53,468 bases of DNA from Perkinsus marinus ATCC 50983 (taxonomy: Eukaryota; Perkinsozoa; Perkinsida; Perkinsidae): contig NW_003202153.1 in NCBI RefSeq assembly GCF_000006405.1, forward strand, positions 213,443 through 266,910, read 5' to 3'. Of this stretch, positions 30,606 through 35,171 are shown piece by piece. The translations under genes and the position numbers were made by a program. The stretch's first letter is position 1; every line of letters begins with the position of its first letter. The notes beneath the pieces were generated by a model. It worked only from the letters and a program-made list of their open reading frames with translations, had not been told where the DNA came from and did not search any database.

Positions 30606-31079
30606 ATGGTGGACTGCCAGAACAATGCATTCTGGCGCGGCATTGACTCCTTCGCTGAGATATCCAACGACTTGGTCATTCTAACTGACCGCCAAGGGAA
30701 GATCGTATACGGCAACTCCCAATCAGAGGCATGGACAGGGTAAGGGTGAGGAGTGGAAGATCCTACGAAAAGGTATCTTTGATAGGTTCAAAGCTGAGGA
30801 GCTCATCGGTCGCGACATAAAGATGCTCATGCCCGACAGAGTGGCGGTGAGTCACGACTCGTTGCTACAGCAGTTCGTGAAGAAGGCAGACGAGGCCATG
30901 GCGATGGACCCTACCCGACGCCCGAGTAGGACATGATTTTGGAAAGGAGTGGTATGATGGTGTCCCAACTCAGAGATAAACGTGGACGAGAGTAGGAATG
31001 TCGAAGTGAAGCACAAGGATGGGCAGGTTACTCCAAGCTCGTTGTTCGTATCGATACTGTAAGCCTTCGCGATCATAGC

Positions 31080-31133
<54 letters not shown>

Positions 31134-31200
31134 CAGTAGTAGTAGTAATAGTAGTAGTGGTAGTAGTAGCAGTAGCAGTAGCAGTAGCAGTAGTAGTAGC

Positions 31201-31232
<32 letters not shown>

Positions 31233-34200
31233 CTGAGCTTTGATTGGTCGGAATTGGTCTTGCGTTCGACGAATTTGAACTTGCGTTTCCGAATTCATAA
31301 ATTTCATTTATGAATTTGAACTTTAGTTTTCGACCGGGCTACGAAAATCGAACTTTCATTTCGAATTTGAACTTTCATTTCGTAAAGAACTCCTTTCACT
31401 CGTCGAAAATCAAATTTCAATCACCTTATTTGTTCTTTCCATTGTTGAATTTCAGATTGAAAAGTTGTATACAGTTTCGCTCAGTTTCGACTCGGATCCT
31501 GCCGATTACAAGCTATGTGCTATACTACGAGACTGCACCAAGATATGTGAGTTAGAGCATAAGAAGGATAGCTTCATGGCAACAGTGAATCATGAACTCA
31601 GTAAGCTCTGGTAGCTGTTGTTAATCTTCACAGACCTACACTGTTTTAGGAACGCCTCTGAATGGCGTTATTGGTCTCTCGGAATCGCTCAGGATGACAG
31701 AACCCAATCCGGGCAGAAAGAAGCACTTGGATATTATTAATAACTGTGCAGTACTGGGGAGGGAATTTCTTAGCGGAGCGAAGTTTTTTTCGTTATCGGA
31801 AATTAGGTTAGATTGTTGGCATTGGTGAATGAGATTATGGACATAGCGGCGTTGAAGGCGAAGAAGATGCAGCTGAATTTTGGTATGGTTAATGTAGGAG
31901 CATCTTGGGCCAATTTCGTGGCGCGTGACGATTGTCTAAGGTGAACGAGATATGTGAGCAAGTATGTGGAGAGATGATGGAAGCAGTGGACAAGAGAGGA
32001 AGGAAGATCAAGAAGGACAAGGTCGATCTAGACTTCATACCGGACCCCGCATGCCCTGAGGTTGAAGGCGACAAGGAGAGGTAAGCGCACGCGACTGTTA
32101 CTTCGACTCGATCATCGTCGGTATGGGAATGGCTTCAGTGAGGGGCATATAGAGACGTGTGGTCTATCGAGGGTTAGATGATGAGCATTGAAGCTGAACA
32201 CTGTGATTCCGTTGTCGTTGGGCCGGGGAGTTAGAGTGTGGACCAAACAGTTATGGATTTTCCAGATGGTTTTCTTCAATTTGAGAATTATAGACTTTGG
32301 GAAGCTTCTAAAACGTTGGTGTCAATCGATTCACATTCTTATCATGTTGACTTTCGAACTCTCATAAATTGAAGGCGTTGGAAGTATTACTTTGCATAAC
32401 GGTTTGGGCCACACTGTAGAGTGAGAATTCTGTGGCGCAGTGACGGCGTGAATCAGGTTGCACTATGTGATGTCGGCTATGGTCAATAACGCGTGCAAAT
32501 TCACATCGAAGGGATCAGTGAAGGTGATTACCAAGGGCAAGGCTAGAGGGGTGAGTAGCAAGAGATCCCGGGTTCGATCCTCAGTGATGTCATTTTTAGG
32601 TACTAATTAAGATTGTTGACACGGGTATTGGCATTGCTGATGACAATGTGAAACGAATATTCACAGAGTTTGAGCAAGAGGATGACGACCACGAAAATAG
32701 GAAGTGAGCTACCTCCGACCCCCCAATCAATATTATCAATGATCTCATTCTGCTTCATCGTGAATGAAAATGACATGGAGAAGCAATTCGATCCATTAGT
32801 TCGACTTCTCTCTCCTTCTGGCCCGATCCTGTTTTCGTCCCCCCCCCCCTCGTGAGTACTCGAGTCTCCTTCAGGTTCGAGGGTCTGGGCTTGGGGCTGT
32901 CAGTATCGAATGAAGTTATCAATCTGCATGGTGGAAGATTATGGTGCGAGTCGGAGCCGGGCCGAGGGAGTAAGAGCCAGACCTGCTAGTTGTGACTATG
33001 CACGACTGTCAAACCTAAAGACTATTTCGCGGTTTCTCACCGTGGGAAACGATCCAGACGAACTAACTATCATATTCTGAATCGCCAGGCTCTGTTAGAA
33101 TATACCAGCCGGAGTCTATCCCACTGTATAGAAATCACACAGCCTTCTTGACCCTGCAGTTGCTGGTGTCGTAGTGAAAGAGTTCGTTTATGAGCCGCGC
33201 TCCCTCAGCCACATTCTTCATTGACTTGGTGTGCAACGCTCGTGAAGTGGTGGATGCGAGGAGCAAGAAGCGTGCTCAGAAGAAGGAGTTGACACAGAAA
33301 ATGGTATTCCTATCGGCGTCGCCTCCTGAGCGGACCCTGTTAGGTTATGGCTGACGAGGGTGTAGCTGGCGAAGGAGATGACCTGGAAGATCTACAGAAC
33401 ACCATCAACGAGCTCGCGGTGAAGGAAGTGTTGATTATTGATGACAGCGATGACACTGCGACGATACTGCGCCCAATGCTGGTGGATCGAGCCTATAAGA
33501 CCAATACGGTTACCGATGGTTTCGCGGCTTTGGATTACTTCAATATGCATCCGATGCCTGATATAGTGATTATGGAGACGGAACTGCCTGGCAACTTGCC
33601 CGGCCTGGACTTCTTGAGTCAGTTCAGGAGAGAGAAGCCACCGGAGGTGAGATTACAACAGTGGCATGGTAGTTGGCGACGGCGCTCCCTCCGAGGTACC
33701 GATACTGGTGATTACTAAGTCAAAAGAGACGTCTAGTCACCTTGAGGCTATACGGAGAGGGGCTACAGCAGTCTACACGAAGCCTGTCACAGAGGAGAAG
33801 CTACCCATCATCATTGACCACATTTTCGCCCTTATACGAAACCGTTATCATGTTCAACATGAGAACAAGGCGAAAGTCAACTACGAGGTGTTAGCATCCT
33901 GAAATTTGACTCGGGTGGGAGGTCTTCTTTCATTCCAGGTGATGGGCCGGGTGATGCCAAAATTCATCATTAATCGATTAAGGGGAGGTGCCACAATGAT
34001 TGCGGATAAGTTGGAATGTGTCAGCTGCGTGGCGGCGGTTGTGCATCAGTTTCCTCTCATCACGCAGGTGGGTCTGACGACGAAGCCTCGGGTTGGTGTA
34101 ATGGAAGGGATCTTGGTCAGGCGGTGCCGGTTACACAATTGGTTGTTCTGATGAATAAAATGACGAATAGTTTCGACCAGCTCTGTAAAGACAATGGGAT

Positions 34201-35171
34201 GTATTCTGTGCTTTCCAATGGGGAGCGATTTCTGGCTGTGTGCGGGCATGAGTCGACGAATGATGAGCATACAGAAGTGGCCTTGAGATTTGCTAGCAAG
34301 CTCTTGAAGGGTGAGTTCCCGTGCGATAACTGCTCCCGGTGAGTGTGTGGGTATTTCATCGCTGGAATGGTCTAGTTGGTTATGACGACTGCCTAACACG
34401 CAGTAGGTCCCGAGTTCGATTCTCGGTTCCAGTATTTTTTTCTCAGCCGAGCAATTGAAAATCGGCAGCACAGGGCAAACCATGAAGCTCAAAATAGGCG
34501 TAAACACAGGCCTGGCCTATGCTGGTGTCATCGGCGGCCGAGCCAAGGCTCCACAGTACGCCTTCTTCGGACCGGGCGTGCAGATTGCCGAGTGGCTCGC
34601 TGAAACCGGTGTTCCCTCCCACCCACATGTCGGCAATGAGACTTACAAGTTGATTATGAGAGAGCATGAGGGTTCGGGCCTGTTCTCATTCCAAGAGAGA
34701 GGCGAGCTCAGAGTATCAGACTCTGAGACCCTCCAGACGTGGTTGTTCAAGGAGAAGGCCGACCAAGACTTGTGCCACTTGAAGGCTTTGGGCGTGCTCA
34801 CAGTCGGTGGGGCAACGGGTGATGATTCCGGAGACATGGTAGGTCCTACGTCCGATCCTTGGAGAGCGTACTCGTTGTACCGTCAGCTTGAACGTATACA
34901 AGAGTTGGAAGCAGAGCTCAGCATTCTACATGGAACCTCCGCCTCTATAGCAGCAACAGCTACTGCCATCGGCAACGACGGCGGAGTAGCTCAGAAGGTG
35001 ACATCCCAGGCCGACCTTATACAGGAGCAGCTCCGGCGAAAAGGAACCATCAACGCTAACAATGCTATAAGTCTAGTGGAACCCATGGAGCGTAATATAG
35101 CAGGAGCCACCGCTCGACTTTTCCAATCCAAGGGGCTTGACCCATCGCAGTGGGGAGCACCTTTAGTATGA
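30606..35171 (+). CDS. PAS-histidine kinase-pseudo-receiver-cyclase-like fusion protein
   Basis: One spliced frame, joined by phase-consistent introns. PAS: ATG 30606, ISNDLVILTDRQGKIVYGNS, then FKAEELIGRDIKMLMPDRVA and RNVEVKHKDGQVTP. HisKA: FMATVNHELRTPLNGVIG across an intron (31600-31651), so the phospho-His is present, followed by LVNEIMDIAALKAKKMQL. HATPase: N-box VMSAMVNNACKFTSKGSV (32465), G1 IVDTGIGIAD (32612), G2 FEGLGLGLSVSNEVINLHGG (32875). Linker SATFFIDLVCNAREVVDARS. Receiver (33425-33890): VLIIDDSDD, but IVIMETELPG with Glu at the phospho-Asp position, then YTKPV. Cyclase fold (33939-34760): PKFIINRLRGG, DKLECVSCVAAVVHQF, MTNSFDQLCKDNGMYSV, KIGVNTGLAYAGVIGG, GPGVQIAEWLAETG. The cyclase metal-binding Asp, base-binding Lys and catalytic Asn/Arg are all replaced. 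Layout resembles Dictyostelium AcrA in concept. The protein probably continues into coiled coil downstream. Confidence 0.9.
31080..31231. repeat. AGT microsatellite inside a histidine kinase intron
   Basis: About 150 bp of (AGT)n with AGC and AAT interruptions, between the PAS exon ending SSLFVSIL (about 31058) and the HisKA exon. It therefore lies in an intron starting GTAAGCC. The minus strand reads poly-Leu in one frame; I do not consider that coding. It is the same trinucleotide as the tract at 4566. Confidence 0.9.
32561..32592 (+). pseudogene. tRNA 3'-half relic inside a histidine kinase intron (sense)
   Basis: The 49-nt intron 32551-32599 separates the HATPase N-box exon from the G1-box exon. 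Most of it is a tRNA 3' end: GGGTTCGATCC B-box, a T-stem with about four of five pairs, an acceptor-like TGATGTC + A, then TTTTT. The T-run doubles as the polypyrimidine tract before AG. No A-box or anticodon arm remains. Confidence 0.6.
34361..34434 (+). tRNA. tRNA-Val(AAC), nested in a protein-gene intron
   Basis: A 74-nt cloverleaf with A-box TGGTCTAGTTGG, anticodon stem ACTGC/GCAGT around loop CTAACAC (anticodon AAC), perfect T-stem CCGAG/CTCGG around TTCGATT, and a 7-bp acceptor stem whose first pair is G-U. The discriminator is A, and seven Ts follow at once as a pol III stop. It lies wholly inside the 136-nt intron 34311-34446 of the histidine kinase/cyclase gene, same strand. The flanking exons join in phase as SKLLK-A-EQLKIG. 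Its T-run runs straight into CTCAG, the intron's 3' splice site. It looks intact and probably functional. Confidence 0.88.

What the first reader, a model, noticed from the sequence alone, without database searches (positions are those of the whole stretch)
30606..35171. Histidine kinase fused to a Glu-locked receiver and a catalytically dead cyclase domain
Seen: a phase-consistent spliced frame encodes PAS, HisKA with its His (NHELRTPLNG), HATPase with N, G1 and G2 boxes, a receiver, and a class III cyclase fold. The kinase looks active. In the cyclase, the FxDIxGFT Asp becomes Val (CVAAVVHQF), the IGD Asp becomes Glu (SNGERF), the base-recognising Lys becomes Ser, and the catalytic Asn and Arg of VNTASR become Gln and Trp (VQIAEW). 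Known: Dictyostelium AcrA joins similar modules with a working cyclase. Inference: here the cyclase fold is retained as a scaffold or nucleotide sensor, so the output may be protein binding instead of cAMP/cGMP. Long coiled-coil exons downstream support a structural or dimerising role. I know of no described system with this combination.
Basis: partly seen in the sequence, partly recalled or inferred. Interest (0 to 1): 0.88.

Follow-up and report, generated by a model that had tools for sequence, protein, structure and literature searches.

The report
Sensor histidine kinase with dead cyclase
An oyster parasite (Perkinsus) makes a bacterial-style sensor kinase that still looks able to signal but carries two disabled output parts, and sister genes suggest that the signal is handed to partner proteins instead.

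Summary
Confirmed and extended. The gene runs from 30606 to about 37556 (31 exons, 1448 aa), not to 35171. It encodes PAS, an intact HisKA/HATPase kinase, a receiver whose phospho-Asp is Glu, a class III cyclase fold without its catalytic residues, and a long helical tail. Splice sites are kept in a second genomic copy (95-97% identical); the fusion and the substitutions recur in a P. chesapeaki protein and P. olseni fragments. The dead cyclase is as conserved as the kinase (92.6% against 91.5-94.7%), so it probably has a non-catalytic job. The claim that no described system has this combination fails: Chlamydomonas COP5/HKR1 is a rhodopsin-kinase-receiver-cyclase protein with an inactive cyclase. 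New here: four sister genes in the same genome. A (this gene) and B (C104) have an intact kinase and a disabled receiver; C (C111) and D (C333) have an intact receiver and no detectable kinase; E (C267) has both. The cyclase is dead in A, B and C; in D and E it could not be read. My best reading is phosphotransfer in trans, from kinase-only to receiver-only members, with the dead cyclase and tail as scaffold. That step is inferred. New variant of a known kind.

The parts
30606..37556 (+). whole gene model, 31 exons, 1448 aa; the exons after about 37050 are less sure
   Evidence: P. chesapeaki protein P0004 starts with the same residues MVDCQNN
30663..31539 (+). PAS domain, residues 20-138 (exons 1-4, spliced)
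   Evidence: Pfam PAS_9 34.7 bits, PAS 26.7; coordinates
31564..31854 (+). HisKA, residues 147-208; phospho-acceptor His156 at 31591-31593
   Evidence: 57.8 bits; His and Glu kept
32067..33228 (+). HATPase_c, residues 262-370, with N, G1 and G2 boxes
   Evidence: 89.8 bits; N277, D304 and G-box Gly kept
33428..33806 (+). receiver domain, residues 424-533; phospho-Asp replaced by Glu473 (33575-33577), other active-site residues kept
   Evidence: 66.2 bits
34005..34751 (+). pseudo-cyclase, residues 583-768: D1 to V594, D2 to E638, N to Q712, R to W716
   Evidence: 86.2 bits
34887..37060 (+). helical, coiled-coil-like C-terminal region, residues 798-1330
   Evidence: P0001 mapping; 77.1% identical in P. 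chesapeaki; helices in the part modelled
34311..34446 (+). intron that splits the pseudo-cyclase and holds a complete tRNA-Val gene (34361-34434)
31059..31484 (+). intron 3, holding an (AGT)n tract and a copy of a dispersed repeat (31234-31469)

Best explanation
A PAS-regulated hybrid histidine kinase of Perkinsus. Shown: intact kinase motifs, a receiver without its phospho-Asp, a cyclase fold without catalytic residues, in one gene with a purifying substitution pattern. Inferred: the PAS signal switches autophosphorylation of His156. Because the attached receiver is unlikely to take the phosphoryl group, it passes in trans to the canonical receivers of sister proteins (C on C111, D on C333, perhaps E on C267). 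The receiver, pseudo-cyclase and helical tail serve as an allosteric and dimerising scaffold that brings kinase-only and receiver-only members together, so the output is protein contact and not cAMP or cGMP.
For: Kinase sites kept in A (the window gene), B (C104), E (C267) and P0008; receiver Asp and cyclase D1, D2, N, R are canonical in 32 of 32 comparison proteins, all lost in A and B, and the four cyclase residues lost in P0008. Between P. marinus and P. chesapeaki the cyclase is 92.6% identical, HisKA 94.7, HATPase 91.5, receiver 85.8. Residues 1-797: 2 non-synonymous against 28 synonymous codon differences between the two genomic copies. Receivers of C and D keep the Asp and are 46 and 50% identical to the comparison receivers, against 22% for A and 31% for B. 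No kinase match better than E 0.4 in 24 kb upstream of C or about 14 kb upstream of D, where the same search found it in B and E with queries other than themselves. No HPt found. The A, B, E and P0008 kinases fall on one side of a branch (SH-aLRT 94).
Against: No interaction, expression or biochemical data. The comparison set was fetched with A's kinase, which favours kinase similarity to A. E has both a kinase and a receiver Asp, and its receiver is only 27% like the comparison set, so it does not fit a clean split. In D and E only the linker into the cyclase could be read, the rest not clearly above background. The profile searches missed A's own HisKA and B's receiver, so HPt proteins, receivers and further kinases may be missed; two weak HATPase_c hits (C120, C60) were not examined. 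The Glu could be a working phosphomimic in cis.
Confidence: 0.4

Rival explanations
1. Cis signalling, the first reader's model: the receiver is held in an active-like shape by Glu, and the kinase or PAS state is read out within the same molecule through the pseudo-cyclase, which binds a protein or a nucleotide.
For: Glu conserved in P. marinus, P. olseni and P. chesapeaki while the receiver's acidic pair, Thr and Lys are kept in A; Asp to Glu can mimic phosphorylation in some receivers (PMC4395418 passages).
Against: Sister B has Ser at the site and Arg for the Lys, so a locked-on receiver is not a family feature. It leaves no use for an intact phospho-acceptor His. P0008 has no receiver that Pfam recognises, but its site cannot be assigned with certainty.
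Confidence: 0.27
2. The pseudo-cyclase pairs with a catalytically competent cyclase elsewhere and regulates it, as was suggested for Cop5.
For: Other cyclase loci in this genome keep catalytic motifs; the fold is close to dimeric cyclases; dimer idea for Cop5 (PMC6284317, PMC8006352).
Against: A has lost residues of both half-sites (D1 of one, N and R of the other; the half-site scheme is recalled), so it could hardly complete an active site, only regulate allosterically.
Confidence: 0.12
3. The kinase domain is itself only a nucleotide-binding switch and the whole protein is a structural coiled-coil component.
For: Long tail conserved in the genus.
Against: The kinase sites scored are kept in A, B, E and P0008, and HisKA is the most conserved domain.
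Confidence: 0.1
4. Two separate genes read as one: a kinase and a receiver-cyclase protein. The NCBI model for P. marinus starts after the kinase.
For: P0001 begins at 33190.
Against: P. chesapeaki P0004 joins PAS to tail in one protein and P. olseni P0124 joins HATPase, receiver and part of the cyclase; these are gene predictions, not cDNA. P0008 joins kinase to cyclase in one predicted protein. Exon 11 carries the end of the kinase domain (TTFFIDLV) on into the receiver linker.
Confidence: 0.04

Closest known systems
Chlamydomonas COP5/HKR1 (rhodopsin-histidine kinase-receiver-guanylyl cyclase)
   Same: Kinase, receiver and cyclase in one protein in that order; cyclase poor in nearly all key residues, no GC or AC activity seen (PMC6284317 passages; PMC8006352); strains lacking it are deficient in ammonium chemotaxis (PMC11621555 passages).
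   Different: N-terminal 8-helix rhodopsin in place of PAS, membrane protein, SAM domain at the C-terminus. I did not have its sequence, so receiver residues and kinship were not compared.
2c-Cyclop1 (COP6) of Chlamydomonas
   Same: Same module order after the sensor; phosphorylation of the receiver Asp activates the cyclase (PMC6284317 passages).
   Different: Working cyclase and working receiver; rhodopsin sensor.
Histidine kinase-receiver-class III cyclase fusions (32 proteins; those with an organism name are bacterial)
   Same: HK, REC and cyclase in one protein; on average 44% (HisKA) and 41% (HATPase) identical to A.
   Different: REC Asp and cyclase D1, D2, N, R kept in 32 of 32; cyclase on average only 14% identical to A.
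Dictyostelium AcrA (recalled, not fetched)
   Same: Kinase, receiver and cyclase modules in a eukaryote (recalled).
   Different: Working adenylyl cyclase (recalled).
Aspartate-less receivers (ALR)
   Same: Receiver fold without phospho-Asp; Glu the commonest substitute (PMC4395418 passages).
   Different: This one sits between an intact kinase and a pseudo-cyclase.

Membership tests
HisKA-type histidine kinase | HisKA with phospho-acceptor His | tested here: met
   57.8 bits, His156
HisKA-type histidine kinase | HATPase_c with N, G1, G2 boxes | tested here: met
   89.8 bits, boxes kept
HisKA-type histidine kinase | autophosphorylation | not testable with these tools
   needs biochemistry
Phospho-accepting receiver | phospho-Asp | tested here: not met
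   Glu473; D in 32 of 32 comparison proteins
Phospho-accepting receiver | acidic pair, Thr/Ser and Lys | tested here: met
   two Asp, Thr and Lys525 kept
Aspartate-less receiver (ALR) | receiver domain with the phospho-Asp replaced | tested here: met
   Response_reg 66.2 bits and Glu473
Catalytic class III nucleotidyl cyclase | two metal-binding Asp | tested here: not met
   V594 and E638
Catalytic class III nucleotidyl cyclase | transition-state Asn and Arg | tested here: not met
   Q712 and W716
Class III cyclase fold | Guanylate_cyc profile and fold | tested here: met
2c-Cyclop / HKR enzyme rhodopsins | N-terminal microbial rhodopsin | tested here: not met
   Pfam up to E 1 finds PAS and no rhodopsin in the model
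2c-Cyclop / HKR enzyme rhodopsins | HK-REC-cyclase order | tested here: met
COP5-like sequence kinship | closer to COP5 than to other cyclase fusions | not tested
   COP5 sequence not fetched

The most novel reading that the evidence does not exclude
Perkinsus has split an ancestral one-protein kinase-receiver-cyclase into a set of paralogues with complementary losses: kinase-only members (A, B) and receiver-only members (C, D) that meet through a shared dead cyclase and helical tail. The cyclase would have become the docking platform of a heteromeric two-component system in an alveolate.
Probability: 0.3. Interest if true: 0.72.

Novelty: new variant of a known kind. Interest (0 to 1): 0.52.

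Why it matters
COP5 was, in the papers seen here, a single odd case of a kinase-receiver-cyclase protein with a dead cyclase. A conserved family in another eukaryotic lineage with the same loss suggests that dead cyclases are kept as non-catalytic parts of two-component proteins more than once. The complementary pattern of intact kinases and intact receivers makes one idea directly testable with purified domains: that a pseudo-enzyme acts as the matchmaker in eukaryotic phosphotransfer. It also corrects a public annotation ('guanylate cyclase, putative') that lacks the kinase and implies an activity that is unlikely.

Tried and rejected
Two genes read as one: rejected on P. chesapeaki and P. 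olseni gene predictions. Pseudogene: rejected on the substitution pattern. An overlooked exon with the missing Asp, Asn or Arg: rejected, because P0001, P0002, P0004 and the profile-guided splicing give the same residues. Frame 34839-35171 as coding: rejected. Complementing half-site model for the cyclase: not supported, both half-sites lost. Dead cyclase as the rule for such fusions: rejected, 32 of 32 comparison proteins are canonical. These are the PF00211-bearing rows other than P0001, P0004 and P0008 that I picked by eye from the 120 rows listed, of 3374 hits; a first count used 24 of the 32. Dead cyclase as the rule for this genome: rejected. I looked at 6 of the 8 loci fetched (L001, L002, L003, L006, L007, L008), some of them near copies, with a pattern that lists only canonical motifs. 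The D1 motif was seen in 6 of 6, the IGD motif in 1 and the VNTASR motif in 1, where lost or merely unlisted motifs cannot be told apart.

Steps that led nowhere or against my reading. The third protein search with a family alignment found, as full relatives, only A orthologues of Perkinsus and no dinoflagellate one; only the 8000 candidates sharing most words were scored. D and E cyclase remainders scored 33 and 34 against 21 and 26 on the opposite strand, so they stay undecided; I do not count the D and E letters at cyclase D1. The receiver site of P0008 cannot be assigned: by eye without gaps it is Ala, two alignments put a gap there, and a third puts an Asp there after a five-residue insertion. 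For C the Arg column is ambiguous. The kinase tree (35 rows, 13 of them from the 32) has 17 open forks of 32, long branches for E and P0008, no support for the Perkinsus rows alone, and its key branch at 94 is under the 95 mark. The AlphaFold model (pLDDT 65.4, pTM 0.43) used an alignment that held 24 active-type fusions, which leans it towards that fold. The origin of P0008 (JGI metagenome, 884 aa) is unknown. Non-synonymous differences between the two genomic copies pile up at the end (15 of 22 in the last 115 residues), so the annotated tail end is doubtful. Paper searches: Perkinsus with histidine kinase, 6 papers; with adenylyl cyclase, 4; with two-component, 7; by title and start of abstract none treats this family; I saw only the listings. 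Papers outside the held library were not searched. On re-checking, the P0008 receiver and the E receiver identity (27%) came out weaker for my reading than first written, so I moved the main odds from 0.42 to 0.40 and the cis rival from 0.25 to 0.27.
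Full report
What is there. The window lies at G000:C231:213443-266910 of a 54.5 Mb assembly. A P. marinus ATCC 50983 protein, P0001 ('guanylate cyclase, putative', 1091 aa), maps to 33190-37553 residue for residue, so the organism is P. marinus or extremely close. By hand, then by profile-guided splicing, the upstream exons give PAS and kinase. 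The full model has 31 exons and 1448 aa. Pfam gives PAS_9, HisKA, HATPase_c, Response_reg and Guanylate_cyc, all over their cut-offs.

Is it one real gene. A second genomic copy on C215 is collinear over the 16 kb compared, at 95-97%, either the other haplotype or a recent duplicate. The GT and AG of all 30 introns are kept in it. Differences at codon positions 1, 2 and 3 number 12, 13 and 63, with dN 0.0072 and dS 0.0686. In residues 1-797 there are 2 non-synonymous against 28 synonymous codon differences, and in residues 571-770 (cyclase) 0 against 5. Of the 22 non-synonymous ones, 15 lie in the last 115 residues, so the annotated tail end is partly unsure. P. chesapeaki P0004 (1529 aa) joins PAS, kinase, receiver, cyclase and tail in one predicted protein, and P. 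olseni P0124 joins HATPase, receiver and part of the cyclase.

The loss does not look like decay. Identity between P. marinus and P. chesapeaki is 94.7% in HisKA, 92.6% in the pseudo-cyclase, 91.5% in HATPase, 88.6% in the PAS part, 85.8% in the receiver, 77.1% in the helical tail. A dead domain as conserved as a kinase probably has a job. A metagenomic protein, P0008, is a distant relative (36% identity over three quarters of residues 1-570) with intact kinase sites, no receiver that Pfam recognises, and a cyclase over the Pfam cut-off (41.9 bits) without the four residues. Its receiver site cannot be assigned with certainty: Ala by eye, a gap, Asp. Six other cyclase loci of this genome keep a D1 motif such as FSDIPGF or FSDVVGF, with IGDAY and VNTASR seen in one each.

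The sister genes. Searches of the same genome with the protein and with HisKA, HATPase_c, Response_reg and Hpt profiles led to four further loci, modelled. B (C104): kinase sites intact, receiver Asp to Ser and Lys to Arg, cyclase D1 to M, D2 to S, N to D, R to H; PF00211 66.9 bits, receiver 29.0 bits, just under its cut-off. C (C111): canonical receiver (98.7 bits), cyclase with D1 to V, D2 to I, N to S and the Arg column unclear (23.5 bits, cut-off 21.9). D (C333): canonical receiver (104.2 bits), then what looks like the linker into the cyclase. E (C267, with a matching hit on C223 that I did not model): kinase sites and receiver Asp kept, then the linker. No kinase match better than E 0.4 turned up in 24 kb upstream of C or about 14 kb upstream of D, by a search that finds the kinase in B and E also with queries other than themselves. 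Mean identity to the comparison proteins is complementary for four of the five: receiver 46% in C and 50% in D against 22% in A and 31% in B, while A and B keep the kinase at 41-47%. E does not fit a clean split: its receiver keeps the Asp but is only 27% identical. The set was fetched with A's kinase, so the kinase figure is favoured; the receiver figure is not. No HPt protein was found. These searches go exon by exon and missed A's own HisKA and B's receiver, so the list of kinases, receivers and HPt proteins is a lower bound; two weak HATPase_c hits (C120, C60) were not examined.

How it most likely works. The PAS domain gates autophosphorylation of His156 (established for such kinases; inferred here). 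The attached receiver is unlikely to accept the group, so it would leave in trans. The only receivers with the Asp that I found in this genome are those of C, D and E, which belong to the same family. The common parts are the linker into the cyclase (by eye in D and E), and the dead cyclase in A, B and C. I therefore infer a heteromeric two-component system in which the dead cyclase and tail hold kinase-only and receiver-only members together. Shown: motifs, conservation, family, complementary losses in A-D. Inferred: activity, transfer, docking, output.

What is known. 2c-Cyclop1 has the same order of modules and its phospho-Asp activates the cyclase (PMC6284317 passages). COP5/HKR1 has the same order with a cyclase poor in nearly all key residues, no activity seen, and a suggested heterodimer role (PMC6284317 passages; PMC8006352 passages and Background section). 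Strains lacking it are deficient in ammonium chemotaxis (PMC11621555 passages). Another eukaryotic hybrid cassette, with the phospho-His mutated, is DAK of Trypanosoma brucei (PMC8519429 passages). Asp-less receivers are a known class (PMC4395418 passages). The Perkinsus family and its paralogue pattern were not seen in the listings of the paper searches made.

Verdict. The idea is not unprecedented. The added finding, complementary losses among sister genes, raises the value and gives a sharp test. Interest 0.52; novelty: new variant of a known kind.

Noticed in passing
window 34361-34434: A complete tRNA-Val (anticodon AAC, 64.5 bits) sits wholly inside the 136-base intron that splits the pseudo-cyclase; it is identical in the C215 copy.
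   Followed up: partly
window 31234-31469: A dispersed repeat in intron 3. 53 of the 57 matches listed are copies or parts of it, several in inverted pairs some 0.5 kb apart, like ends of a short transposable element.
   Followed up: no
window 32551-32599: A 49-base intron contains GGGTTCGATCC, which looks like a tRNA B box (by eye); a tRNA-derived origin of some introns is a thought.
   Followed up: no
window 31080-31236: Long (AGT)n tract inside intron 3; the intron differs in length between the two genomic copies.
   Followed up: no
window about 28358-30014, minus strand: Divergent neighbour that looks like a spliceosomal EF-G-like GTPase (Snu114/EFTUD2 type) by eye from the ORF list.
   Followed up: no
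P0001 (P. marinus NCBI model): Public gene model starts at 33190 inside intron 10 and omits the PAS and kinase exons; the name guanylate cyclase is misleading.
   Followed up: yes
G000:C104, C111, C333, C267/C223: Sister genes with complementary loss of kinase or receiver function in four of five members.
   Followed up: partly
P0008, JGI metagenome: 884-aa distant relative with intact kinase sites, an unrecognisable receiver and a dead cyclase; host unknown.
   Followed up: partly
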